A DNA stretch of 64,000 bases, taken from the IMG/VR virus record IMGVR_UViG_3300049629_001734, positions 1 to 64,000 of that record. One strand, 5' to 3'. Within the stretch, counting starts at the first letter, position 1. Every line of letters begins with the position of its first letter. Below the pieces are notes generated by a model. It had not been told where the DNA came from and made no database searches. It saw only the letters and a list, made by a program, of their open reading frames with translations. Source of the stretch: a virus. The position numbers were made by a program, and so were the translations under genes. This document shows positions 48,028 through 64,000 of the stretch, piece after piece.

Positions 48028-49566
48028 ATGATAATCACTAAACTTGAAAATTTTATTGGCGAATCTATTCTACAAGCTTCCAGTGAGTTGAAATCTTTAC
48101 TTACTAATCTTGACGATCGGATATCGAAGGTATTACTGAGCCTAATTGGTAAAGATGTAAAAACAAATTATAATTTCTTAAACTTAAGTGACGAAGCTGG
48201 TAAATTTACTTTTACAAGTGATTCTCAAGCTAGTAGAAAACTCTCTAAAGGTGTAACTGAAGAAGAAATATTCTCTACTGGCAGTAAATCTTATGTAGGA
48301 AGAATAGTTCACTCAATACTAGAAGACAACGGTATTGAACATACTATGCAAGAAATCGAAATATTCACCAATAAATTCAAAGCAGCCGTAGAGTTGGGAA
48401 GATTTCGTGATAGAATAAAAGTAGTTAGTGGTGATGATATAGCTTTTTGGTATTCAGAAAATAACTACAATGAGAGAACAAGAAAAGGTATGGGTCAACT
48501 TGGAAAATCTTGTATGAGAAGTAGCAGAATCTCGAAATTTTTCAAGATTTATACGATGAATCCAGATACGGTTAGAATGGTCATTATTTTAGATGATGCT
48601 GAAAAACTCTCAGCTAGAGCACTACTTTGGAACTATTCAGGTAAATTTTATCTAGATAGAATTTACTTTACAGAAGATTCAGAGCAAGAGTTGATGAAAA
48701 AATGGCTTGAAAAATATTATTTACTAAGACCGTTAGATAAACTTTCTCTTTCGGATGATGTTGTTATTAAAAATACTGAAAACCCAGATGGAACATTTAA
48801 TAAGTATCCTTATATGGATACTTTTAAATTTTACAACCCAAAAAAGAAAACTCTTCGTGTTTTAGAACCATCAGACAAAAGTGGTTGGATTCAGATTTCA
48901 GATACTGGTGGTGGATTTGAGTATTTAGATAGAATATGGTGTGAGAATGAACAGGAGTGGTATCCAGAAGACAAGTGTGTTTATTCACAATATGATGATA
49001 TTTACATACATAGAGATAACGCGGTTTATTCTAAGTATTACTCGGATTACCTATATCGACCAGATGCTGTTTTTTCCGAAACGCAAAATAGTTGGCTTAA
49101 AGAAGGAAACTCTATTACCTTTTACACAGATTTCAATCAAAATGGAAAGGACGTCGTTGATAGAGATGAAATTATGGGTATTTGTTTTCCTAAACTAATA
49201 GAAGTTAAAAAAACTTACAAGGTTGTGTGGTTTAGTGATAAACTTTTCGATTCTGGTGAAAATAGTAGAACGCTAGTTGAGGATTACTACGATCTCCTAG
49301 TAAAATATTTTCCTCCAGAAGATGTCGAAATAAAATCAGAAGGTGAAAATAGGTATACCTTAAGTTCTCGTGAATATCCAAACTTTCTGGTGGTCGAAAA
49401 AAGGATATTGCTTGCTAATTTTTCATATCCAACATTACAGAAATTTTTTTGGGAAAAATTCAAATTAGTTGTTGATTATCATCTTGAAAAATATTGGTTT
49501 GAACAGGGCCTTAAAAGATACTGGAAAGAGATAAAGGCTAAAAAAAATATTCAAGTAGAGTGGTAA
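48028..49566 (+). CDS. Tagged internal-protein candidate with GKSCMR domain and W/Y repeat tail (paralogue A)
   Basis: 512 residues. The N-terminus MIITKLENFIGESILQ fits the capsid-targeting tag with a cleavage site IGE/S, like the gp21 consensus L/I-x-E. The domain at ~130-240 has GMGQLGKSCMRS, FKIYTMNPDTVRMVIILDD and RALLWNYSGKFYLDRIYF. A C-terminal part has repeats such as DNAVYSKYYSDYLYRPDAVF. It is clearly paralogous to the protein at 51300-52808 (shared LGKSCMR, NP, PYMD-x-FK-x-YNPK). The function of the GKSCMR domain is unknown to me; a resemblance to PcfJ-type HC motifs is only impressionistic. The stop overlaps the next start by 7 bp. Confidence 0.7.
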   Translation: MIITKLENFIGESILQASSELKSLLTNLDDRISKVLLSLIGKDVKTNYNFLNLSDEAGKFTFTSDSQASRKLSKGVTEEEIFSTGSKSYVGRIVHSILEDNGIEHTMQEIEIFTNKFKAAVELGRFRDRIKVVSGDDIAFWYSENNYNERTRKGMGQLGKSCMRSSRISKFFKIYTMNPDTVRMVIILDDAEKLSARALLWNYSGKFYLDRIYFTEDSEQELMKKWLEKYYLLRPLDKLSLSDDVVIKNTENPDGTFNKYPYMDTFKFYNPKKKTLRVLEPSDKSGWIQISDTGGGFEYLDRIWCENEQEWYPEDKCVYSQYDDIYIHRDNAVYSKYYSDYLYRPDAVFSETQNSWLKEGNSITFYTDFNQNGKDVVDRDEIMGICFPKLIEVKKTYKVVWFSDKLFDSGENSRTLVEDYYDLLVKYFPPEDVEIKSEGENRYTLSSREYPNFLVVEKRILLANFSYPTLQKFFWEKFKLVVDYHLEKYWFEQGLKRYWKEIKAKKNIQVEW

Positions 49567-51287
49567 TCAAAGATTTCAGGCAGTTTCTTATCAGGGAAAA
49601 CTTAGATGCTGCTAGAAAGTTTTTAGATAAAACTATTTATAAAGAGGATGAACCTGCACAAAAATTGTTTCGTAAAACTTTTGACAGGATTATCAAAAGA
49701 TTAGGATCGAAAGTTGGATGGTCATTACTTTTTACCCGATTTTATTTTCAAGAAGGTATCGAATTGTCTAGACTTTTTAGAGATGAGAATACACCTGAAA
49801 TCGGAGCTCTTTACGATAGACTTTCAGGTATAAATCCGGGCGATCTACCTCGTCAATTGGATGAATATCCAAAGCTTGAAAATGGATTCGAAATACTTTC
49901 TGATGATATTAGAGATTTAGAAGAGAGGGCGAGTGTGAAAGATTTCATACAAAACTTACCAGGTCAATTTGTTGTAACAAATAAATATTCATCTAAACTT
50001 GGTCAAACTATACCTTCTATGAAAGAGGAGTTTAGAAGAATGTCGCCAGAAAAAAAAAGAGAAGTTATTCAACTTGCGATAGCTATTCGTCAATCAGGAG
50101 AGGCTAAATACAAAGCTTTCATACAAAAAGTTAAAAGATATGGATCCCTATCAGAACTTATAACAGCAGGTAAAAAATATTTACTTGCTCTAAATCTTGA
50201 ACAGGAAGAAAACTATCTAGAAAAGATAAGTTCACTTCCTGAGAAATTTGTAGAAGTTCTTTTCGATAGATTTTCTATCTATATTGTAAAAGTAGATAGT
50301 TTTTTTGTAAATCAAAGATTACACGGTATGACTTCACATTGTATAGCAAAAGATATTGGACACTGGAATACCTATTATCTACCTGAAAATACACAATACT
50401 ATATTACAAACTTTAATCTTGATTCGTCAGATCCTCTATCAGTTATAGGAGCGACGGTTTATCCCAATGGGAAATTCAAGACTATTCACTCTAAATTCGA
50501 TAAAAAGATGAGTACAGACGAACTTATTTCGTATCTTGATGGATTAGAAAAAGAATTTAGAATTGATATCGATTTACTAAAATTTCTAAAACCGATAACA
50601 TATCCAGAAATATTAGTTCGAGAAAAAAGAAAAGAGGCAAATATAAAAATTAAAAAAACAGGACTTTCTTTAGTAGAGATCCAAAAATTACTAGAGGATG
50701 GAGCAGATCCAAATGGAACTTTTGGAGAACCTCTCAAAAATGCCATAAACGAAAATAACATAGAAAAAGTTGAATATCTTTTACAAAACGGAGCGGATCC
50801 CAATATCTTAGAAAGAGAACTATCTTTCGGAAATGTTTTTAGTATAAAATCAAAAGAGATTTTTTTCTTACTTATTCGTTATGGATTAAAGAACACATCT
50901 ACTAAAACTTTATTTAGAATATACGATGATTTTTCTAAAGAGGGTCTACAATATTTAGTTAGAGAACTAGGTATAGAATCTATAAATCGGTTTGATGCTC
51001 ATTTATTGAGAAAGTCGGTTGTTCGTAAAGAAGTAGATTCTGTTAGGTGGCTGCTCCAAAAAGGAGCTAATCCTACCGTTAGAGGTGGCGAGCCTATACA
51101 TCTAGCTATTGATGAATATAAAAAAATCGAGAAGATTTCACCTGAACAAGCTAAAAAAGTTCTAGATATTATTGGTTTATTATACAATAGTCTTGAGACG
51201 AGTGAAATAGGTAGAAAAATTATTCAGGGTGTTAGTAAAAGTCCAGATAGATTGGAGATATTGAATAAATCTAGAAAAAAATATTAA
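49560..51287 (+). CDS. Tagged ankyrin-repeat protein
   Basis: 575 residues from a GTG overlapping the previous stop. It begins MVIKDFRQFLIREN, a capsid-targeting-like tag with possible cleavage after IRE. The middle contains RLHGMTSHCIAKDIGHWNTY and IGATVYPNGKFKTIHSK, which may be a diverged version of the SCMR domain of its neighbours. Residues ~375-560 are ankyrin repeats (LVEIQKLLEDGADPN, NNIEKVEYLLQNGADPN, EVDSVRWLLQKGANPTVRGG). Ankyrin repeats bind proteins; in a phage with a packaging tag they could hit a host target on entry. No catalytic domain recognised. Confidence 0.7.
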   Translation: MVIKDFRQFLIRENLDAARKFLDKTIYKEDEPAQKLFRKTFDRIIKRLGSKVGWSLLFTRFYFQEGIELSRLFRDENTPEIGALYDRLSGINPGDLPRQLDEYPKLENGFEILSDDIRDLEERASVKDFIQNLPGQFVVTNKYSSKLGQTIPSMKEEFRRMSPEKKREVIQLAIAIRQSGEAKYKAFIQKVKRYGSLSELITAGKKYLLALNLEQEENYLEKISSLPEKFVEVLFDRFSIYIVKVDSFFVNQRLHGMTSHCIAKDIGHWNTYYLPENTQYYITNFNLDSSDPLSVIGATVYPNGKFKTIHSKFDKKMSTDELISYLDGLEKEFRIDIDLLKFLKPITYPEILVREKRKEANIKIKKTGLSLVEIQKLLEDGADPNGTFGEPLKNAINENNIEKVEYLLQNGADPNILERELSFGNVFSIKSKEIFFLLIRYGLKNTSTKTLFRIYDDFSKEGLQYLVRELGIESINRFDAHLLRKSVVRKEVDSVRWLLQKGANPTVRGGEPIHLAIDEYKKIEKISPEQAKKVLDIIGLLYNSLETSEIGRKIIQGVSKSPDRLEILNKSRKKY

Positions 51288-52818: not shown

Positions 52819-54423
52819 TTATACAGATTTACTTACAAGTAATTTTTCTTTAACAAAATATAAATAATCTATTTGTGTGTTTAAGAAACAATCTATGGCG
52901 TGCTTTGGTGTTTCTACAATTGGTTCTTGGTTATTGAAAGAAGTGTTTAAAATCATCGGAACTCCTGTTTTTTCAAAAAACATCCTTATAAGATCATAGT
53001 AATATCCATTATCTTGTGAAGTTACTGTTTGAAGACGCGCAGTATTGTCGTTATGTAAAATAGCAGGTACAAATTGTCTTTTTTCTTCTCTCACAGGAAC
53101 TGCAAAGCTCATGTAGGGACTGTCTATATCAAATTCAAACCAATTTGGCACCTCTTCTCTCAATACCGAGGGAGCGAATGGTCGGTAACTTTTCCTGTGT
53201 TTAACTTTTAAATTGATAAGATCTTTCATATATGCAAATCTTGGATCTGCTATAATACTTCGATTACCAAGAGCTCTTTTTCCTGATTCACTGCCTTCGT
53301 TGAATAGAGAAATTATTTTTGAACCTGTCAATAAATCTACTATCTTATCAACATCTATATTCTGAGTAATAGTTAGATTTTCATAGTTTGTAAGAGTATC
53401 TAAGACTTGTGATGAAGTATAAGTTTTTCCCAAATAAGAGGTATGATGCTCTTGAACTCTTGGATTATCTAAAATATGATACCAAGTATATTTAGCAGCT
53501 CCTATTGATAGTCCACTATCATTTGGTGCCTGATCACAAAATACGTTATATCCCTTTTCGATTAATATTTTAGATATTTTACCAAGTGCTACACAATTTA
53601 GAGAAACACCACCAGAAAAACAAATATTTTTAATTTGTTTGGTGTCCGGCGTAGTGTCTAGATGGGAAAATACAAAATGTATCATCAACTCTTCTGTTGT
53701 GTATTGTAGAGCGGCTGCTATATGAAATCTATTCTCGTCTGATTTTTGGATCTCTTCTCTAAAAAAAGTTATGAGTTCGGTATATTTCATATTGGAAGAT
53801 TCTTGCCAAGCCCAAAGATTTTCAAATCTTAGTTCATTTATTTTAGATAAATATTTTGAATGATCACCAAATGATGCCATAGCCATTAATGTTCCTGATT
53901 CATCCCCTTTGGGCGAACAGGCAAATCCCATATCTAATACAGATTGTAGAAAGAATGTCCATATAGATCCTATATTGAAAGTATGTCCACGATATACTGG
54001 ATATATTTTATTTTCATTTCCAAGAAAAACACAATTTGTGGCGAGATACCAATCGTTTTCAAAGCCGCCACCATCAAATGTGAATATTATAGATTTTTCG
54101 AAGTTAGAGTTATAAAAAACAGATGATGCGTGACAAGTATGATGTCCTACATAATCAATTTTTTTTCCTGTCTCGGTGAATATTTCTTCACCTATATCTG
54201 TGTGCCAACCCCATACACTAACAAACTGATCAAAATCTTCTATCTTGAAATCCTTAAAGATCAAATTCTTGATTGTATCTGAAAAGGGTGGTTTATTGTT
54301 AAAAAGGCCATCGTGTTTTATCCTAGTAAATCTTTCTAGTTCATTATGTAGAACTATTTTACCATTTTCTATTACACAATAAGATGCGTCATGTGGGGTA
54401 GAGGCATAAGATAATATTCTCAT
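52819..54423 (-). CDS. NodU/CmcH-family carbamoyltransferase
   Basis: 534 residues, normal length for the family. The N-terminal Kae1-like domain has HDAS (11-14), VGHHTCHASSVFYNS with the metal His residues (94, 95, 98) and FTFDGGG (114-120). CFSGGVSLNCVALGKI follows, and the C-terminal YrdC-like domain has GKRALGNRSIIADPRF and FNNQEPIVETPKHAIDCFL. These enzymes move a carbamoyl group from carbamoyl phosphate to a hydroxyl. Phage and virome members can carbamoylate 5-hydroxymethylcytosine in DNA; no hydroxymethylase is visible in this window, so DNA modification is a hypothesis, as is modification of a surface glycan. TATATAAT lies close to the start. Confidence 0.9.
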   Translation of the reverse strand: MRILSYASTPHDASYCVIENGKIVLHNELERFTRIKHDGLFNNKPPFSDTIKNLIFKDFKIEDFDQFVSVWGWHTDIGEEIFTETGKKIDYVGHHTCHASSVFYNSNFEKSIIFTFDGGGFENDWYLATNCVFLGNENKIYPVYRGHTFNIGSIWTFFLQSVLDMGFACSPKGDESGTLMAMASFGDHSKYLSKINELRFENLWAWQESSNMKYTELITFFREEIQKSDENRFHIAAALQYTTEELMIHFVFSHLDTTPDTKQIKNICFSGGVSLNCVALGKISKILIEKGYNVFCDQAPNDSGLSIGAAKYTWYHILDNPRVQEHHTSYLGKTYTSSQVLDTLTNYENLTITQNIDVDKIVDLLTGSKIISLFNEGSESGKRALGNRSIIADPRFAYMKDLINLKVKHRKSYRPFAPSVLREEVPNWFEFDIDSPYMSFAVPVREEKRQFVPAILHNDNTARLQTVTSQDNGYYYDLIRMFFEKTGVPMILNTSFNNQEPIVETPKHAIDCFLNTQIDYLYFVKEKLLVSKSV

Positions 54424-55085: not shown

Positions 55086-56582
55086 ATGTTAGTCGATGCT
55101 GTTTATATTTCACCAAAAAAGAAACTACTGGTTTCATACGTAGATAAAACCGGTAATATCAAATTTAAAAACTATAACTGGACCAATCCAAAAAGATATA
55201 TTACATGTGATAGTGGAGATCCAGATAAACATCCAAAATACAAATCTTGGGATGGTAAGTGTGCTAAGTTAGTAGATACCGATAATCCTGATAGATACGC
55301 TATTTACGAGTATCTAGATGCTCTTCCCGAAGCTGAAAGAGATATTCTTTTTGAGTATAATCTACCTAAAATTTACTTCATTGATATCGAAACCGAGATC
55401 GTAGATGGTTTTCCAACAGCCGAAGATACACCTACACAAGTTCTCTCAATTTCTATTGTTTATGACGATAAAATTATATTACTTGGTCTAAAAGATCTCT
55501 CGATTGAATCTCAAGAAAAAATCATTTCAGATACCAACGAATATTTCAAAGATTTCAAAGCAGATTATAAACTTAAATACTTGAAATACGACGATGAGTT
55601 CGATCTATTGAACTCTTTTTTCAACAAGATGGTTCCACAAATGCCCCTTCTAACGGGTTGGAACTTCCTTGATTACGACTGGAAATATCTAGTTAATCGT
55701 TCTAGAAAACTTAAAAAGATTATTAACGGTGTTGAATATACAATCGATCCGAATGTATCGTCACCAACCAAAAGAATGAGTAAAATCTGGATGAAAGAGA
55801 TTGATATTCCCCAACATCGTATGGTGTTTGACTATATGCAACTCTACGAGATTTGTGATACTTCAATCAAAGTTAAAGAATCATCTTCTTTGGATTTTGT
55901 AGCTAATAAACTGACTGGAACTCAGAAGATTAAATATTCAGGTTCGTTACAAAAACTTTATGAAGATGACTTTGAGCTATTCATGTATTACAACGCAGTT
56001 GACTCGGTGCTAGTTCAAAAGATACACGATGTCAAAAATTACATCTCTATTATTTTCGCTATATCGTGCCTTGCTAAAATAAAGATTGTTGATGTTATTT
56101 CTCAAATGAATAACTCTCTAGCTTCTCTTGCTATTACTGAAGGTGTGTTGAGATGTAGATTCAGAGAAGAAGAGAATATGGTATTATTCAAAGAAGAGAA
56201 AAAAGGAGCCGACGCAGAAGGATTGAGTGGTGGTTGGGTTAAAGATCCGGTTGTAGGTATGAATAAGTGGTGTGCTATTTATGATTTTGCATCACTTTAT
56301 CCTACGACCCAGCGTCAGTTCTACATAGCTCCTGAGACTTGTCTTGGTAAAAAAGATAAAGCTCGGCCTACACACACCGAGAGTGGTATTGAGATCCAAA
56401 GTGACAAACATGTACTATGCGTGAATGATGTTATTTTTGAGAAAAGAGATTCACCAACACTAAGAATGCTGAAAGATGTTTATTCTGATAGAAAAAAGAA
56501 TAAAAAGATAATGCTTCAAAGAAAAGAAGAGCTTAAAGAAGTTCAAGAAAAAATAAAAAAATTAGAAGCTAGTCTTCTGTAA
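55086..56582 (+). CDS. gp43A: N-terminal half of a split family B DNA polymerase (T4 gp43A-like)
   Basis: 498 residues. The 3'-5' exonuclease is intact: Exo I YFIDIETE with D100 and E102, Exo II LLTGWNFLDYDWKYLVNRS, Exo III MYYNAVDSVL. Polymerase motif A is present, IYDFASLYPTTQRQF with D400, close to T4 D408. The protein then stops after the first finger helix (KKIMLQRKEELKEVQEK), without motif B (K-x-x-x-N-S-x-Y-G) or motif C (D-T-D-S). T4 gp43 has 898 residues. Some Aeromonas T4-like phages split gene 43 in the fingers into 43A and 43B, and the break here is alike. No 43B is seen in this window, so it must be elsewhere. Confidence 0.85.
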   Translation: MLVDAVYISPKKKLLVSYVDKTGNIKFKNYNWTNPKRYITCDSGDPDKHPKYKSWDGKCAKLVDTDNPDRYAIYEYLDALPEAERDILFEYNLPKIYFIDIETEIVDGFPTAEDTPTQVLSISIVYDDKIILLGLKDLSIESQEKIISDTNEYFKDFKADYKLKYLKYDDEFDLLNSFFNKMVPQMPLLTGWNFLDYDWKYLVNRSRKLKKIINGVEYTIDPNVSSPTKRMSKIWMKEIDIPQHRMVFDYMQLYEICDTSIKVKESSSLDFVANKLTGTQKIKYSGSLQKLYEDDFELFMYYNAVDSVLVQKIHDVKNYISIIFAISCLAKIKIVDVISQMNNSLASLAITEGVLRCRFREEENMVLFKEEKKGADAEGLSGGWVKDPVVGMNKWCAIYDFASLYPTTQRQFYIAPETCLGKKDKARPTHTESGIEIQSDKHVLCVNDVIFEKRDSPTLRMLKDVYSDRKKNKKIMLQRKEELKEVQEKIKKLEASLL

Positions 56583-56591
56583 AAACCAAAA

Positions 56592-58244
56592 ATGTCACTA
56601 TACAAAGATGTAAATAGATTCAAACCAAGGCAAGAGCAAGTAGATTGCCTTGAGCATATGAAAGTTGTTTTAGATGAAAATCCAAAAACAAAGTTTTTTC
56701 TACTGAACCTTCCGGTCGGAACTGGTAAATCACATCTAGCGATGATGTTTTCAGATTACTATACCAGAAAGATAAATAAAACTGCGAAAATCGATATCGT
56801 AACAGCTTCGAAAATCCTACAAGATCAATACGAGGATGAGTATGTAAGTATTTGTAATCTCAAAGGTAAAGAAAACTATAACTGTCAGCAGTATAGCTGC
56901 TCGTGTATGCAGGGTAAAGAGTTTGGAAAACTTAATAAATCTCCCTGTGATATGTGCCCCTATGACGAAGCTAGAAACGGTTGGATTGGTGGTAAAATTT
57001 CTCTTACTAACTTCTACCTCTATCTTATTTATACAATTTATAATGAAAAACTACTCGATCTGAGAAGTCCAAATGTTTTAATCGTAGATGAAGCTCATGA
57101 ACTTGATTCGGTGATATCTGATTTTATTTCTATTAAAATTACAGAAAACACAATCAAAAAGTTGAAGTTTCCAGATGAAAGAGGTATTATCAATAAACTC
57201 AAACGTGTTACGAATATCGCCACCTACATTAACTTTCTAAAAGAGTTTGTTATTGATATTTCAGAGAATATAGCTGAGCTTCAAAAAACGATGGGTGAAT
57301 CACCAAGAAGTGCGAAAGCCGACAGACGTGAAAATAGAATAGGAAAAATCACTGGTAGTAAAAACCCTGATATGAAGCTCATGAATATCTTGAATGATCT
57401 GACAAGCTATATCACCAAGATTGAACTTTTTCTAAAAGAATGGGAAGCCACACCAGACAATTGGGTATTAGAAACTAACTGGAACGAAAAGACACGTCAA
57501 AAAGAACTCTCACTTGAACCTATCTGGTCACAAGAATACTTGAATAAATATCTTTGGTCTAAGTATGATCTAGTTATTTTAATGTCTGGAACTATTATTG
57601 ATAAGGAACTTTTTTGTGATATCAATGGTATCAATCCAAAAGAGGCTATTTATTACTCTATACCTTCCCCTTTTGATGCTCAGAATAGAAAGATTTTCTA
57701 TTTACCGATGGGGAAAATGTCTTGGGAGAAAAAAGAAGAAACTTTCAAGAACTATGTCGAGGTCTTACCGAAAATCTTGAAAAAATATTCCGGTAAAAAA
57801 GGTATTATCCATACGAACTCGTTTGAGCTTTCTGGTTGGATAAAAGAGGCGGTATCGGATGATAGACTACTTTTTCATGATAGTGATAATAAAAATGAAA
57901 TTTTACAACATCACTACCAAACCGACAAGCCTTCGGTGATTGTTTCACCATCGATGTCCACAGGTGTTTCTTTTGATCATGATAGAGCTAGATTTCAGGT
58001 GATTGCTAAGATTCCCTACCCAAGTCTTGGTTCTCAGAAAAATAAAATGAGAAAGCAGCAAAATCCAAACTATTACGCCTGGAAAACTTGCTGTGGTATT
58101 ATACAAATGTGTGGAAGAGCTGTTCGTTCACATACAGACTTCGCTGATACGATTATTATTGATTCGTCTTTTGGTGATGTTTTGAGGTATTCATCTAAGT
58201 ATTTACCTCAATGGTTTTTGAGTTCAGTTCAGAGTAAAGGTTAG
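56592..58244 (+). CDS. DinG/XPD-like Fe-S superfamily 2 helicase
   Basis: 550 residues. Walker A NLPVGTGKSH (39-48), a cysteine cluster between motifs I and II (NCQQYSCSCMQGKEFG, SPCDMCPYD) suited to a 4Fe-4S cluster, DEAH box VLIVDEAHELD (D166), an ILMSGTIID motif and motif VI IIQMCGRAVRS (~503-513). This is the plan of the XPD/DinG family, 5'-3' DNA helicases in repair and replication. It lies 9 bp after the split polymerase gene and may act with it. It overlaps the convergent small gene by 4 bp (TTAG). Confidence 0.85.
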   Translation: MSLYKDVNRFKPRQEQVDCLEHMKVVLDENPKTKFFLLNLPVGTGKSHLAMMFSDYYTRKINKTAKIDIVTASKILQDQYEDEYVSICNLKGKENYNCQQYSCSCMQGKEFGKLNKSPCDMCPYDEARNGWIGGKISLTNFYLYLIYTIYNEKLLDLRSPNVLIVDEAHELDSVISDFISIKITENTIKKLKFPDERGIINKLKRVTNIATYINFLKEFVIDISENIAELQKTMGESPRSAKADRRENRIGKITGSKNPDMKLMNILNDLTSYITKIELFLKEWEATPDNWVLETNWNEKTRQKELSLEPIWSQEYLNKYLWSKYDLVILMSGTIIDKELFCDINGINPKEAIYYSIPSPFDAQNRKIFYLPMGKMSWEKKEETFKNYVEVLPKILKKYSGKKGIIHTNSFELSGWIKEAVSDDRLLFHDSDNKNEILQHHYQTDKPSVIVSPSMSTGVSFDHDRARFQVIAKIPYPSLGSQKNKMRKQQNPNYYAWKTCCGIIQMCGRAVRSHTDFADTIIIDSSFGDVLRYSSKYLPQWFLSSVQSKG

Positions 58245-58546: not shown

Positions 58547-58751
58547 GTTGTGTTTTTTTTCTTGTATATATAAAATTTATTTTCTGGAAAAAATCAACTT
58601 TTTGATACAAAATATTTGAATATTCTCTGGGTGAGTCTTATACGAGCTTGTGAAAGAAATTCATCAATTGTATCGATTATGAAAATATATATTTGAGAAA
58701 TTATTTTGTATAGAGAGATAAAATGGGTATATTTGCATATAAATAGACTAT
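58547..58751. promoter_or_regulatory. Divergent intergenic region with a perfect T4-late-like TATAAATA
   Basis: The longest gene-free stretch of the window (205 bp). It holds TATATATA near 58565 for the minus-strand gene, and on the plus strand TATAAATA at 58738-58745, identical to the T4 late consensus, 6 bp before the ATG at 58752, which implies a near-leaderless transcript. No convincing gene is seen in it. Confidence 0.5.
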
Positions 58752-61205
58752 ATGAAGAAACTATTATCCTGGGCACTTAACGAGAAAGATGTTGAGAATT
58801 TTTGGAGAGCTCAACTTATGAAACTTTTTCCAGGTGGAAAAATGACCTCACCGTTCAATACAGACGGATATTTAGAGGATGACGGTGGTAAAGTCACTGT
58901 CTTGTTCGAAGCTAAATACGAACAAAATCTTAGCGATAAGTTGTCCCAGGTTTCTGTTTTATCTCAGACCTTATTCTACTTGAAAAAGTTTGAAAAAAAT
59001 GGTCAAAGACTACCCAGAGTAGTTTTTATTGCTGATAGAAATGAAGCTTTCGCTCTACATACAAATTGTCTTGCAAAATATCTAGATTTTCCACTAGACT
59101 GGAACTCGGCAGCTTCGTCTAGTTCCAGATTGAATCCAGAGTTGATTTCTAAAATGTTAGAAGATGATACTATTTTACCTTTCGTTTTTAATGTAGTCGA
59201 AGGTTTCAATTTTGTAGCTATTCAAAAAAAGATATTGAGTCTATCTCACGATGTAAAAAGATTAATAAAGATCACTGAGCACAACATCACTTCAGTGTTT
59301 GAATATTTTCAGAAAAATGTCTTAGTCAAGAATAAATTATCAGTCAATGAAACCGCTAATTTGTTTATTAACTTGATTATCAATCCTGAAGATAATTATC
59401 TACATCCAGTAAAAAGGCATACTCTAGTAACTAAATCGTTTGGTCCTATACAGATCAACGGTGAGAAGTTAATGGCATTTTTAGAGCACTTTGATGGTAA
59501 TCAATATTGTATGGAAGAAAAAGAAAAACTTACTTCTATTGTTGATAGGCTTATCGAAGATGAAACAAGAAGAAGAAAAGGTGAGTTCTTCACACCTACA
59601 GTTTGGGTAGATGAAGCACACAAGATGATCTCTGAAGCTTTTGGTGATAACTGGAAAGACGAGTATGTTGTGTGGGATCCCGCTTCGGGAACACTTAACT
59701 TGACCCGGGATTATCATTTTAGGGAGTTATACTGCTCAACTATTGAGGCGTCGGATTTACAAACAGCCGATCAGATGGGATATAATCCAGAGGCAGTCAA
59801 GTTTCAGTATGATTTTCTTAATGATGGTATAGTTGATGGTAATATTGATATTGAAGGTGATACAAAATTACCAGAGGGTTTGAAAAGAGCTCTGTTAGAG
59901 GGTAAGAAGATGATTGTTTTGATGAATCCACCTTATGGAACTGCTAATAATGCCGGAACCACAGAAGGTGATCATAAATCAGGCATCGCCATGACCGAAC
60001 TGAATAAGATGATGAAAGTTGAAAAATGGGGCGCTTCGTCTCAACAACTATATGCGCAATTTCTGTTTAGATTGACTAAGTATCACAATCTGAAAATTTG
60101 TCTTTTTTCTCCACCACTTTTTATGAGTGGAAGTTCTTATAAAGAATTCAGAAAAAAGTATTTTGATTTTTATGGATTTGATAGAGGATTTCTTATGAAT
60201 GCAGGTGAATTTGATGGAACATCTGATTGGGGGTTGTCTTTCACAATTTGGTCAGATGTGAACAATGACAGAACTGATTTTGAGCTAAGTGTTGGAAGTT
60301 CTAATGAACTTGGTGATGTTGAGTTTTTTACAAATAAACTTATCTATAACTTAGATAATAAATTAGAAGCCTCGAAATGGGTTAGGTCGCCATTGAAAGG
60401 ATTGAAAACTTTTGATGTTCCAAATTTTTCTAGTGGATTAAAACTCAAAAATTCTGGTATATGTAAAGTTATCAAAAATAATCTAGGTTATTCATACAGT
60501 GATAATAATAATATTGCTAAAAATAATCAGAGTGTTGGGTTATATAGTCTGTCCAACGCTGCTGCTCATGGATTTTCTATCAATGAATCTAATTTTATAA
60601 TTTCATCCTGTCTATTCACTTCTAGAAGACTTATTTCTGGAAAACAAGCCACGTGGATAAATTGGTGTGACGAATATATGGCACCAGATGAATCACATCC
60701 ACTTTGGGAACAATTTAGTTTAGATTCTATTGTCTATTCTCTATTTGAATCCAAATCAAACCAATCCTCCCTTCGTCAAATAGATTACAAAGACAAAAAG
60801 TGGGACATCAAGAATGAATTTTTCTGGATGTCTAAATCTGATATGTTAAAACTAGCATCGGATCATTCTTATGATGAACTCTATCGTGACGCCAGAACAA
60901 CTGAAGAAAGACACGTCTATAATCTTCTTCATAATGAGGGTATATACTCTCGTCTTTCACCTGACGCTCGTGAGGTTCTTGATATGGCAACAGAACTTGT
61001 TAAAAAGTCATTCCCTATGAGAAAACCACTCAATGAACAACATCCAGAGTATCACTTAAATACTTGGGACGCAGGTTGGTACCAAATCAAACTTATACTC
61101 AAAAAGTTCTATCCCGCTGAACTTATCGAATTCGGTAGAAAATACAGAGCCTTTGAGGACAGAATGAGACCACTCGTGTATGAGGTTGGATTTTTGAGGA
61201 AATAA
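58752..61205 (+). CDS. PD-(D/E)xK nuclease fused to an N6-adenine DNA methyltransferase (type IIG-like)
   Basis: 817 residues. The N-terminal ~120 have a nuclease pattern: D38 in NTDGYLEDDGG, then VTVLFEAKYEQ with E53-x-K55. The middle holds gamma-class methyltransferase motifs: RRKGEFFTPTVWVDEAH, motif I VVWDPASGTLNLTRDY (~305-320), and catalytic motif IV LMNPPYGT (N392-P-P-Y395). A C-terminal region of ~350 residues may recognise DNA. A single-chain restriction-modification enzyme is the natural reading. Motif I usually reads D-P-A-C-G-T-G-N-L-T; here the second Gly is Leu, so activity needs care. It is followed 82 bp later by a GHKL ATPase gene on the same strand. Confidence 0.8.
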   Translation: MKKLLSWALNEKDVENFWRAQLMKLFPGGKMTSPFNTDGYLEDDGGKVTVLFEAKYEQNLSDKLSQVSVLSQTLFYLKKFEKNGQRLPRVVFIADRNEAFALHTNCLAKYLDFPLDWNSAASSSSRLNPELISKMLEDDTILPFVFNVVEGFNFVAIQKKILSLSHDVKRLIKITEHNITSVFEYFQKNVLVKNKLSVNETANLFINLIINPEDNYLHPVKRHTLVTKSFGPIQINGEKLMAFLEHFDGNQYCMEEKEKLTSIVDRLIEDETRRRKGEFFTPTVWVDEAHKMISEAFGDNWKDEYVVWDPASGTLNLTRDYHFRELYCSTIEASDLQTADQMGYNPEAVKFQYDFLNDGIVDGNIDIEGDTKLPEGLKRALLEGKKMIVLMNPPYGTANNAGTTEGDHKSGIAMTELNKMMKVEKWGASSQQLYAQFLFRLTKYHNLKICLFSPPLFMSGSSYKEFRKKYFDFYGFDRGFLMNAGEFDGTSDWGLSFTIWSDVNNDRTDFELSVGSSNELGDVEFFTNKLIYNLDNKLEASKWVRSPLKGLKTFDVPNFSSGLKLKNSGICKVIKNNLGYSYSDNNNIAKNNQSVGLYSLSNAAAHGFSINESNFIISSCLFTSRRLISGKQATWINWCDEYMAPDESHPLWEQFSLDSIVYSLFESKSNQSSLRQIDYKDKKWDIKNEFFWMSKSDMLKLASDHSYDELYRDARTTEERHVYNLLHNEGIYSRLSPDAREVLDMATELVKKSFPMRKPLNEQHPEYHLNTWDAGWYQIKLILKKFYPAELIEFGRKYRAFEDRMRPLVYEVGFLRK

Positions 61206-61287
61206 TACTATATAATTAAACAACATAATTTCAAATTATATAAATGATAACCTTGATACAGCTTCAGGGTAAAAAAAAAATCATAGT

Positions 61288-62898
61288 ATGAATAATAATC
61301 AATTAGATCATTACGAACAACCAGATGTTGAATTAAAAGATTTTTCAACAAATCAACAAAAACACAAAATCATCTTTACACCTAGATCTTTACAAGATAT
61401 GGTGAAAGGTTCAGGATTTACATTTAATCAATCTATAGCAGAATTTATCGATAATTCTTTAGATGCTGGCTCTACAAAAATAGAAATAAGTGCTAGGCGT
61501 CAAAAAAATGATTATTTTTCTATAGAAATAAAAGATAATGGAAGTGGTATGTCTGATGATATACTAGAAAAATTTACACAAATAGGTTATGGAAACCCGG
61601 AAAATTACTCTACTACACAAATTTCTAATTATGGTTTAGGTGCGAAATTTGCTATAATCAACATTTGTAAAGAAGGCCCGGTCGTTATTGAAAGTGTATC
61701 TAATGGAAATAAAATAAAATTGAATTTTTATACAGATATACAAGAACCTTATGTTTCAATTGAAAAAAAGGAAATTACTAACGAGGCTAATTATACAAAA
61801 TTATACATACCTAATCTTGAGGTTAATGGTGCTAAAATTTCTAAAAATCAACTTGATTCTCTAAAAAAATTTATAGGCGCCACCTATTTTCCACACATAG
61901 AACGCGGAAATCCTTTGAAAATTGAATTTTCCGTAGATAGAGAAGAACCAGTTAGTATAGATTTCACAGATCCCATTTATAGAAATTTAACAGAAAGGGA
62001 CGGAGTAGAGAAAAATGATGAACAATGTATGATAGATGGATACCTAATCTCAGTAAGAGGAAGGTGGTTCAATAAAATGCTATTTTCTACAGATAATTTC
62101 AATTTACACGACAGTAAACAAGGTGGAACTGGTTTTGCTGCAGCTAGAAGTGGGATTTATTGGAGACTCAACGGAAGATATATCAAAATGGGTGATGGGG
62201 ATTTTATGAGTAGAGATTCTTTTCAACAAAAACTTAATCATTTAAGAATAGAGGTGGATTTAGATAGAGTTTTTATTGAAACTTTTGGTATAGGGTTCAA
62301 TAAATCTAAAATTTCAATTGATCGAAACAATGAAAAATTGAAAGATTTTTTCAATTTAATAAACGATATCATTAAATGGGCTGAGAAAAAATACATAGAT
62401 CAAAATAAACAAAATACCTCACAAGATCCAGAAATTACAGAAGAAAGAGACAATATAAATAGAGATCTTTCTGCTATTAGAAGACAAATAGGTCATGAAA
62501 ATTATAATGAGCTTTTACCAGAACTCTCAAAAGCTAAAGTCTTAACAGAAAAAGAAAAAACCGAGAAAACCAAAAATAGACCTGATGGATTGCAATATAA
62601 AAAATCTAACCTTCAGTTTAGGTATGTCAACAATGGAAAGTTTGATAGAGCTTTTGGTTACGGTAAAGAAAACGGTCAATTGGTCGTAGATCTAAATTTG
62701 GATCATCCATTTGTTGAAAATTATATAAAAGCAGATAGATCGTCGAAAAAAGCTTTTGATATGATGCTTTTATCCTTCATAGAGGGATTACTTGATACTA
62801 GACGTGAATTCAACTCTGATGTAGATTTTGCTAATTGGGAAGATTACATGGTAGACAACTTCAGTCGTAGAATGTCCAGGTACTTTACACACTATTGA
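61288..62898 (+). CDS. MORC/MutL-like GHKL ATPase
   Basis: 536 residues. N-terminal Bergerat ATP-binding fold: SIAEFIDNSLDAGST with E52 and N56, DNGSGM (83-88) and NYGLGAKFA (114-122). A transducer-like domain follows (SVRGRWFNKMLFSTDNFNLH), then a helical region (NINRDLSAIRRQIGHENYNE) and a C-terminal domain. ATP-driven dimerisation around DNA is the rule for MutL and MORC proteins. Prokaryotic MORC-like GHKL proteins are known in restriction-modification gene clusters. Here it follows the nuclease-methyltransferase gene, which supports a joint job. I see no Hsp90 or histidine-kinase partner domain. Confidence 0.85.
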   Translation: MNNNQLDHYEQPDVELKDFSTNQQKHKIIFTPRSLQDMVKGSGFTFNQSIAEFIDNSLDAGSTKIEISARRQKNDYFSIEIKDNGSGMSDDILEKFTQIGYGNPENYSTTQISNYGLGAKFAIINICKEGPVVIESVSNGNKIKLNFYTDIQEPYVSIEKKEITNEANYTKLYIPNLEVNGAKISKNQLDSLKKFIGATYFPHIERGNPLKIEFSVDREEPVSIDFTDPIYRNLTERDGVEKNDEQCMIDGYLISVRGRWFNKMLFSTDNFNLHDSKQGGTGFAAARSGIYWRLNGRYIKMGDGDFMSRDSFQQKLNHLRIEVDLDRVFIETFGIGFNKSKISIDRNNEKLKDFFNLINDIIKWAEKKYIDQNKQNTSQDPEITEERDNINRDLSAIRRQIGHENYNELLPELSKAKVLTEKEKTEKTKNRPDGLQYKKSNLQFRYVNNGKFDRAFGYGKENGQLVVDLNLDHPFVENYIKADRSSKKAFDMMLLSFIEGLLDTRREFNSDVDFANWEDYMVDNFSRRMSRYFTHY

Positions 62899-63060
62899 AA
62901 GAACTTAAATTTTTCAATTTTTATTCCACTTTTTTTATTTTTATTCGTATTATTGTCTAATAAAATACAAAGAACTCTATCTGATAACGAATCAATATGT
63001 CCATTCAAAGTATTTTTACAAAAAACTCGTGCTGGACGAAGAAAAAAATAATTTATTAAA

Positions 63061-63705
63061 ATGATAAGAACTTTTCATCAATTTATTCGACAAACATGTT
63101 GGAAATCAGATGACAAATATGCTATAATAGGAACAATTCATCCACATAGAGTAGATGATTTTGATCTGAACTTTTTTTATGGAAATAAGGGTTTTCTCTG
63201 GAGCATACTCGGACAAGCTTTTCCAAATCTAGATTTTACAACCGTAGAATCTATAAAAAGAATACTATCGAGAAATCGTATTTGGATTACAGATATGATT
63301 GAAGAATGTAGTAGGCCACATGAGAGAGAAACCAGAGATAGTCATCTATATGATTTGAAATTGAATACTAAACTTATAGAAGAAGGTCTTCGGGGATCAC
63401 AAATTGATACTATATTTCTAACTTCAAGATTTGAAAGGAATAACGCTGCTGAATTGTTTATAAGAGCTTTTGGTTTAGATCTTTTATCATGGAACGAAGA
63501 ATTATCACAGTTCATTATACCTTCTTCTAAATTTGGTAGAGAAATCAGAGCAGTAGTTCTCTTCTCACCGTCTGGTCGTGCGAATCTTGGTATTTCTAGA
63601 TCAAAATCATATCTAGCCAGTAAAGATAGATACGGTCAAGAAAAGAATCCAGTGGCTTTATTCAAGATTGATTTTTATAGAGATAAATTCGCATTCTTAG
63701 TATAA
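63061..63705 (+). CDS. Uracil-DNA-glycosylase-superfamily-like protein with N-terminal tag
   Basis: 214 residues. Starts MIRTFHQFIRQTCW, close to the shared tag but without a clear cleavage Glu. The next part has AIIGTIHPHRVDDFDLNFFY and YGNKGFLWSILGQAFP, the pattern of a mug/UDG-like fold with its FYGN-x-x-N/G-x-F/L-W motif. RNRIWITDMIEEC and TIFLTSRFERNNAAELF follow. Members remove damaged or deaminated bases or, when catalytic residues are lost, only bind DNA. The usual catalytic G-x-D-P-G motif is not obvious, so activity is uncertain. About 160 bp of gene-free AT-rich sequence precede it. Confidence 0.55.
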   Translation: MIRTFHQFIRQTCWKSDDKYAIIGTIHPHRVDDFDLNFFYGNKGFLWSILGQAFPNLDFTTVESIKRILSRNRIWITDMIEECSRPHERETRDSHLYDLKLNTKLIEEGLRGSQIDTIFLTSRFERNNAAELFIRAFGLDLLSWNEELSQFIIPSSKFGREIRAVVLFSPSGRANLGISRSKSYLASKDRYGQEKNPVALFKIDFYRDKFAFLV

Positions 63706-63726
63706 ATATTTTTATATATACCCAAG

Positions 63727-64000
63727 ATGACAAACAACTTTAGAGTCTTAAAATGGAAAGATCATTCGCAAAGTATCGATCTAGCTCAAGATTTTCTAGA
63801 AAATATCAAATCTTCTCTATTTGAGGCGAAAACCGAAAACGATGAAAATGAAATAAAAAAGTTTCTCGAAAAAGTTAAAGCGGACCTTTCTCTAAACTTT
63901 GCCTTTGCCTCTACTTTTGGAACCGGTGTTGGATTTGCTCTACCTATTGTTAAAGATCTTATAGAAAATGGGAATCTTCAAATCGAAGCTTCTTCAGAAA
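63727..64000 (+). CDS. Truncated gene with membrane-like segment (3' end off the window)
   Basis: The first 91 codons start MTNNFRVLKWKDHSQSIDLA and include a helical charged part (ENEIKKFLEKVKADLSLNFA) and a possible membrane segment (FAFASTFGTGVGFALPIV). TATATATAC lies a few bp before the ATG. Nothing more can be said without the rest. Confidence 0.55.
   Translation, partial: MTNNFRVLKWKDHSQSIDLAQDFLENIKSSLFEAKTENDENEIKKFLEKVKADLSLNFAFASTFGTGVGFALPIVKDLIENGNLQIEASSE

What the first reader, a model, noticed from the sequence alone, without database searches (positions are those of the whole stretch)
58752..62898. Phage-borne nuclease-methyltransferase plus MORC-like GHKL ATPase: possible restriction or anti-rival system
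A type IIG-like protein (E53-x-K55 nuclease, NPPY methyltransferase) is followed on the same strand by a GHKL ATPase with complete N, G1 and G2 motifs. Prokaryotic MORC-like ATPases are known in restriction-modification clusters. In a phage this pair could protect its own DNA while cutting the host or rival phages. The promoter carries a perfect TATAAATA.
Basis: partly seen in the sequence, partly recalled or inferred. Interest (0 to 1): 0.75.

Follow-up and report, generated by a model that had tools for sequence, protein, structure and literature searches.

The report
Phage-borne restriction-modification enzyme plus MORC ATPase
A fragment of a very large bacterial virus carries an extra block of genes encoding a one-protein cut-and-protect DNA enzyme, of a type bacteria normally use against viruses, and a MORC-like ATPase; the enzyme belongs to a widespread, previously uncatalogued family whose cutting and methylating parts are intact in every full-length viral copy examined, so such viruses probably use it against host or rival DNA.

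Summary
The 817-aa protein (58752-61205) is type IIG-like: N-terminal PD-(D/E)XK nuclease, gamma-class N6-adenine methyltransferase, C-terminal target-recognition domain (TRD). It matches no Pfam, NCBIfam, PHROG or PADLOC model, yet has relatives in about 100 viral contigs (up to 673 kb) and in bacteria and plasmids, where it is annotated 'hypothetical'. Nuclease residues D38, E53, K55 and methyltransferase residues N392, P394, Y395 are invariant in all 57 full-length phage members. Related phages swap only the TRD inside otherwise ~91-94% identical genes, a restriction-modification (R-M) hallmark. The best-matching solved structures are type IIG or related enzymes (DrdV, BpuSI, MmeI). The 536-aa ATPase (61288-62898) is a MORC-like GHKL-S5 ATPase. 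The two genes plus a 214-aa ORF fill a site that lacks all three in 38 related huge-phage loci, so they are accessory cargo. But the specific pair occurs nowhere else: 0 of 36 enzyme-bearing phage records carry the ATPase and 0 of 28 ATPase-bearing records carry the enzyme. A functional partnership is therefore only plausible. TATAAATA is not enriched; a Bacteroidota-type promoter fits better. Activity and target are untested.

The parts
58752..61205 (+). Type IIG-like R-M enzyme, 817 aa (called MT here)
   Evidence: ORF; family alignment; model pLDDT 81; Foldseek to DrdV/BpuSI/MmeI
58863..58916 (+). PD-(D/E)XK nuclease core of MT: D38 ... E53-A-K55 (Q72 follows at 58965-58967)
   Evidence: invariant in 57/57 distinct full-length phage members and present in 33/34 bacterial members
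59580..59699 (+). MTase motif X (GEFFTP 277-282) to motif I (D309-P-A-S-G313-T-L-N316)
59925..59936 (+). MTase motif IV NPPY 392-395
   Evidence: N392, P394, Y395 invariant in 57/57 phage members
59940..60671 (+). Target recognition domain (TRD), about residues 397-640
   Evidence: region swapped between otherwise ~91-94% identical relatives; natural split point near residue 500
60672..61202 (+). Conserved C-terminal part of MT (contains IKNEFFWM 686-693)
61288..62898 (+). MORC-like GHKL-S5 ATPase, 536 aa
   Evidence: HATPase_c_3 1.2e-19; profile best PDB hit MORC2 6e-14; fold SMCHD1/MORC3/MORC2/MutL
61441..61647 (+). ATPase motifs: N-box E52..D55-N56, G1 D83-x-G85-x-G87, G2 G116-x-G118-x-K120
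62152..62184 (+). S5-domain MORC-type signature GIYWRLNGRYI (partial match to GhXhhpXXRhl)
62695..62712 (+). C-terminal NxxHPF motif shared with phage MORCs and several R-M-island MORCs
63061..63705 (+). 214-aa ORF, third gene of the accessory block, function unknown (faint uracil-DNA-glycosylase-like pattern)
   Evidence: weak hit 2l3f E 0.53; absent from all related sites
58547..63726 (.). Accessory segment, about 5.2 kb, inserted between conserved replication genes
   Evidence: in LR745206 and LR756502 the same interval is about 100 bp; none of 38 syntenic loci has MT, ATPase or 214-aa ORF
58705..58735 (+). Bacteroidota-type promoter-like element TTTG-N19-TATATTTG upstream of MT
56592..58244 (+). 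Left conserved flank: DinG-like helicase (58% identical in a 635-kb phage)
63727..64000 (+). Right conserved flank: start of 257-aa ORF (continues beyond the window to 64497), followed by DnaB-like helicase

Best explanation
The 817-aa protein is a single-chain type IIG-like restriction-modification enzyme. It most likely methylates adenine in its recognition sequence in the phage's own replicating DNA (N6-adenine; motif unknown) and cuts DNA lacking that mark with its N-terminal PD-(D/E)XK domain. Virions made in the previous cell carry the mark, so after infection the enzyme can attack unmarked DNA of the host and of competing phages or plasmids while sparing its own, and it also protects phage DNA against host restriction enzymes that share sites. 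The TRD sets the sequence and is exchanged between phage lineages. The gene came in as accessory cargo, inside one replication-gene interval, together with a MORC-like ATPase and a 214-aa ORF. Shown: genes, motifs and their invariance, architecture, TRD exchange, an all-phage clade, accessory insertion. Inferred: catalytic activity, N6-adenine product, direction of attack, and any role of the ATPase in the same reaction (perhaps clamping or remodelling DNA at sites, by analogy with MORC and MutL).
For: R~M~TRD order with intact catalytic residues in all 57 distinct full-length phage members and nuclease residues in 33/34 bacterial ones. DNA-level TRD swap: L041/L010 94.3% identical up to nt 1191, then one 129-bp piece at 72% and otherwise no alignment until nt 1908, then 94.7% onward past the gene end; L014/L039 90.7% to nt 1302, then 84.6% from nt 1720. 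Foldseek PDB: best hits DrdV 4.7e-7 and BpuSI 7.0e-7, then MmeI 4.6e-5 and BsaXI 1.5e-4. Natural split into R-M and TRD polypeptides at residue ~500, as in two-gene type IIG systems. Lone gene by context on bacterial plasmids. A 25-member all-phage clade, SH-aLRT 99. Absent from 38 orthologous sites and from 34 related records. Precedent: marseillevirus R-M degrades rival virus DNA, chlorovirus R-M contributes to host DNA degradation (PMC7253447).
Against: No activity data. Recognition sequence unknown. Foldseek TM-scores are low (~0.2), because domain arrangement differs or is poorly modelled. No match to curated type IIG models; the only curated hint is a sub-cut-off Eco57I hit in relative L002. 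Five phage relatives appear to lack the nuclease domain (L265, L292, L294, L311, L313), so modification alone suffices in some phages. The record is an 82-kb fragment, so other partners cannot be excluded.
Confidence: 0.72

Rival explanations
1. The methylase and the MORC ATPase (and perhaps the 214-aa ORF) form one multi-gene restriction or anti-rival system in which the ATPase acts on DNA at sites found by the type IIG-like enzyme.
For: Adjacent, same strand, 82 bp gap with no terminator-like site; same lineage-specific insertion. Prokaryotic MORCs mainly belong to R-M operons (PMC2292703), and relatives here include dcm/Vsr/helicase/Z1 islands. The closest viral MORC, L136, directly follows a D12 adenine MTase, itself preceded by a 285-aa ORF; L154 directly follows a beta-class MTase.
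Against: The exact pair is seen nowhere else: 0/36 and 0/28 records, and none in the flanks of 78 enzyme loci. Bacterial and plasmid homologues of MT look like lone genes by context. Type IIG enzymes need no ATPase. An MTase-like gene lies within 3 kb of only 4/26 viral MORCs, weakly above background.
Confidence: 0.25
2. The protein now serves only as a protective methyltransferase against host restriction; the nuclease is vestigial.
For: Many phages carry several orphan MTases; other MTase classes lie near MT relatives; five relatives appear to lack the nuclease domain.
Against: D38/E53/K55/Q72 are invariant across 57 divergent phage members down to ~31% identity, not expected of a vestigial domain.
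Confidence: 0.15
3. The ATPase is an independent phage DNA-replication or recombination factor (MutL/MORC-like) that happens to lie next to MT.
For: Stand-alone ~500-aa viral MORCs without R-M genes nearby are common; in L104 one lies between gp32-like and RecA-like genes.
Against: In this phage it lies in the same accessory interval as MT, and most related records lack it.
Confidence: 0.4

Closest known systems
Type IIG restriction-modification enzymes (BpuSI, DrdV, MmeI/IIL, Eco57I)
   Same: single chain, N-terminal PD-(D/E)XK, gamma-class N6-adenine MTase with motif X first, C-terminal TRD, TRD diversification (definition PMC3874165; fold hits)
   Different: no recognisable sequence match to PDB chains or curated families; phage-borne clade; distinctive conserved C-terminus IKNEFFWM; activity unmeasured
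BcgI/BsaXI-type (RM plus separate S)
   Same: several phage relatives are naturally split into R-M and TRD ORFs at residue ~500; BsaXI is among the fold hits
   Different: the window protein is unsplit; only one TRD-like region seen; double-sided cutting untested
Prokaryotic MORC / paraMORC ATPases in R-M operons (Iyer 2008); MzaB
   Same: GHKL plus S5, NxxHP[FY] C-terminal motif in several relatives, MzaB hit 4.6e-11 over the ATPase domain
   Different: S5 signature only partly matched, no adjacent Z1 or dcm gene found, MzaB score 42 against a cut-off of 850
Virus-encoded R-M of chloroviruses and marseilleviruses
   Same: virus protects its DNA and can cut unmarked rival or host DNA (PMC7253447)
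   Different: separate MTase and REase genes in marseilleviruses; eukaryotic hosts
T4 rIIA-type phage GHKL proteins
   Same: phage-borne GHKL ATPase with divergent C-terminus (PMC7824862)
   Different: no rIIA-named PHROG matched; best matches are MORC/MutL

Membership tests
Type IIG R-M enzyme | N-terminal PD-(D/E)XK nuclease fused to the MTase | tested here: met
   D38..E53-x-K55..Q72 invariant in 57/57 phage members; strand-helix pattern in the model
Type IIG R-M enzyme | gamma-class N6-adenine MTase, motif order X-I-...-IV (NPPY) | tested here: met
   GEFFTP 277-282, D309..G313, NPPY 392-395
Type IIG R-M enzyme | C-terminal TRD that diversifies independently of catalytic parts | tested here: met
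   swapped block, about residues 398-636 in L041/L010
Type IIG R-M enzyme | overall fold like solved type IIG enzymes | tested here: met
   DrdV 4.7e-7, BpuSI 7.0e-7, MmeI 4.6e-5, prob 1.00, but TM ~0.2
Type IIG R-M enzyme | match to a curated family model (Eco57I, N6_Mtase etc.) | tested here: not met
   no hit for the window protein; relative L002 hits Eco57I below cut-off. A library criterion, not a mechanistic one
Type IIG R-M enzyme | cleavage at a fixed distance from the site; m6A modification | not testable with these tools
   needs biochemistry or long-read methylation calling
Prokaryotic MORC ATPase | four GHKL ATP-binding motifs plus S5 domain | tested here: met
   N, G1, G2 motifs and conserved K339, the fourth motif not examined separately; fold hits SMCHD1, MORC3, MORC2, MutL (model pLDDT 68)
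Prokaryotic MORC ATPase | S5 signature GhXhhpXXRhl | tested here: inconclusive
   GIYWRLNGRYI: R at an 'h' position and L at the 'p' position do not fit
Prokaryotic MORC ATPase | R-M operon context with SFII helicase | tested here: inconclusive
   adjacent to an R-M-like enzyme; a DinG-like SFII helicase lies upstream, but it is a core replication-block gene of this phage clade
MzaB (MZA system) | full-length MzaB score and Z1/AIPR partners | tested here: not met
   42 bits against cut-off 850; no such partner among the neighbouring proteins scanned
rIIA family | match to an rIIA profile | tested here: not met
   PHROG hits are 6203, 857, 10912, 6918, none named rIIA

The most novel reading that the evidence does not exclude
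Huge phages carry a dedicated, long-lived lineage of complete type IIG restriction-modification enzymes that they retarget by TRD exchange, and in this lineage a MORC ATPase and a third protein have been recruited to make it an ATP-dependent anti-rival or host-takeover system.
Probability: 0.2. Interest if true: 0.8.

Novelty: new variant of a known kind. Interest (0 to 1): 0.6.

Why it matters
Restriction-modification is normally the host's weapon. A phage clade in which cutting and protecting residues are both intact in every full-length member examined, with recognition domains being exchanged, suggests large phages deploy R-M themselves. It makes the question of what phages use R-M for directly testable, provides a source of new-specificity enzymes missed by annotation libraries, and adds a phage setting for MORC ATPases, whose prokaryotic role has largely been inferred from gene neighbourhoods.

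Tried and rejected
Conserved MT-ATPase operon: searched both ways, not found. TATAAATA promoter: not enriched. rIIA homology: no hit. INPHARED relatives of MT, ATPase or 214-aa ORF: none. Peptide-pattern searches with the ATPase alone in viral and genome collections: nothing; an alignment of remote plasmid relatives was needed. PDB sequence hits for MT: none, even with a profile. 214-aa ORF as a DNA glycosylase: only a 0.53 E-value hit, left as a lead. L044 'ATPase' in an MT-bearing phage proved to be a histidine kinase.
Full report
OBSERVATION. The window is bases 1-64000 of an 82,487-base virus record. ORF 58752-61205 (817 aa, here MT) and ORF 61288-62898 (536 aa) are on the + strand, 82 bp apart, followed by a 214-aa ORF at 63061-63705. 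No terminator-like site was found between the two genes.

WHAT MT IS. MT has no significant match in Pfam, NCBIfam, PHROGs or PADLOC, nor in phage records or PDB sequences. It does have relatives: 41 IMG/VR loci at 38-65% identity in the best segment, 105 confirmed stretches with a profile-derived search, in contigs up to 673 kb, 39 genome loci from Bacteroidota, Bacillota, Saccharibacteria and others, and 14 plasmids, where the genes are 'hypothetical protein' or unannotated. In the alignment D38, E53, K55, Q72 (nuclease), G277/F279 (motif X), D309/G313 (motif I), D354 and N392-x-P394-Y395 (motif IV) are invariant or nearly so. In 57 distinct full-length phage members the nuclease residues and N392, P394, Y395 are invariant, while D309 and G313 are each present in 56. 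Of 34 bacterial members, 33 keep D38, E53, K55 and Q72.

TRD. Identity between close relatives collapses only between about residue 361 and 640. At DNA level L041 and L010 are 94% identical on both sides of a divergent block nt 1192-1907 of the gene, where only a 129-bp piece at 72% aligns, and L014/L039 behave alike. This is the pattern of specificity exchange. Several phage members are split into two ORFs at residue ~500, between MTase and TRD, and in one (L027) a GIY-YIG ORF lies between the halves.

STRUCTURE. An AlphaFold2 model (pLDDT 81) finds type IIG and related R-M enzymes first in the PDB: DrdV, BpuSI, MmeI, BsaXI. TM-scores are low (about 0.2) over the whole multidomain chain, so the support is for architecture, not fine detail. 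The best viral match is an 'N-6 DNA methylase' of a siphovirus (E 5.7e-22, TM 0.44-0.47).

PHYLOGENY. In a tree of 62 members 25 phage proteins, including the window's, form one clade (SH-aLRT 99), while three other phage members fall among bacterial ones. The gene has therefore been kept in phages for a long time and has also moved between phages and bacteria.

THE ATPASE. Profile comparison puts MORC2 first (6e-14), before MutL (about 1e-6) and Hsp90. The model (pLDDT 68) matches SMCHD1, MORC3, MORC2 and MutL, and also Hsp90 and topoisomerase ATPase domains. The S5 signature of MORCs (PMC2292703) is only partly met by GIYWRLNGRYI; a C-terminal NxxHPF motif is shared with phage MORCs and several R-M-island MORCs. 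Remote plasmid relatives include two in R-M islands (dcm, Z1, PD-(D/E)XK, helicase). Around the viral MORC loci, 116 neighbouring proteins include SNF2-type helicases (9), cytosine methylases (8) and Vsr (4).

ACCESSORY INSERTION. The flanking genes (PolB part, DinG-like helicase, 257-aa ORF, DnaB-like helicase, and in LR756502 ribonucleotide reductase) are syntenic with 635- and 642-kb phages LR745206 and LR756502, in which about 100 bp replace the 5.2 kb that holds MT, the ATPase and the 214-aa ORF. In 38 loci with both flanking genes none of the three is present (some loci are near-identical phages from different samples). In 34 related records MT is absent, with a positive control ringing, and one record has a partial GHKL match. 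The records are fragments, so absence is per fragment.

LINKAGE. Among 36 MT-bearing phage records none has a HATPase_c_3 hit above cut-off, none of 78 loci in a second, overlapping set has the ATPase in its flanks, and none of 28 viral MORC records has MT (that search had no positive control, but the same query rang). So the exact pair is unique so far. Viral MORCs do sometimes follow other DNA methyltransferases: L136 (D12 class) and L154 (beta class, 548-kb contig); 4 of 26 have an MTase-like ORF within 3 kb. I regard partnership as plausible, not shown.

PROMOTER. TATAAATA is at chance level. TTTG-N19-TATATTTG at 58705-58735 resembles the Bacteroidota promoter form (recalled from general knowledge) and is over-represented upstream of ORFs in this window, which hints at a Bacteroidota host.

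MECHANISM. By definition type IIG enzymes are gamma-MTases with an N-terminal cleavage domain (PMC3874165). A phage that carries one and is itself methylated can cut unmarked DNA. Precedents are eukaryotic giant viruses: marseillevirus R-M can degrade DNA of rival viruses lacking the system, chlorovirus R-M contributes to host DNA degradation (PMC7253447). Which of these applies here is undecided.

Noticed in passing
L013:13511-17125 (+): A Cas12a-like protein (PADLOC E 4e-192) lies about 1 kb downstream of an MT relative in a 116-kb viral contig.
   Followed up: partly
L044 (viral record G002): An MT-bearing viral contig also encodes a PAS histidine kinase followed by a response-regulator-like ORF.
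   Followed up: no
window 52819-54423 (-): Carbamoyltransferase (Pfam Carbam_trans_C E 7e-60), a possible nucleotide- or base-modification gene.
   Followed up: no
window 49560-51287 (+): ORF of 575 aa with ankyrin repeats.
   Followed up: no
window 55086-56582 (+): B-family DNA polymerase represented here only by an N-terminal part (exonuclease plus start of the polymerase domain, 498 aa); ORFs of similar length occur in two related huge phages.
   Followed up: partly
L027:2255-3301 (-): GIY-YIG ORF between the two halves of a split MT gene.
   Followed up: partly
L262: A full-length MT followed by a 381-aa ORF matching only the nuclease end of the family profile.
   Followed up: no
L002:7779-9437 (+): A DUF262/GmrSD-like ORF (by eye) lies upstream of the window enzyme's sister copy.
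   Followed up: no
G000 81365-82486 (-), beyond the window: Collagen-like GSSGSSGTSG repeat protein running off the record end.
   Followed up: no
window 63061-63705 (+): The 214-aa ORF has a faint uracil-DNA-glycosylase-like pattern; PDB 2l3f E 0.53 only. Brig1, a defence protein, belongs to that superfamily (PMC11078745).
   Followed up: partly
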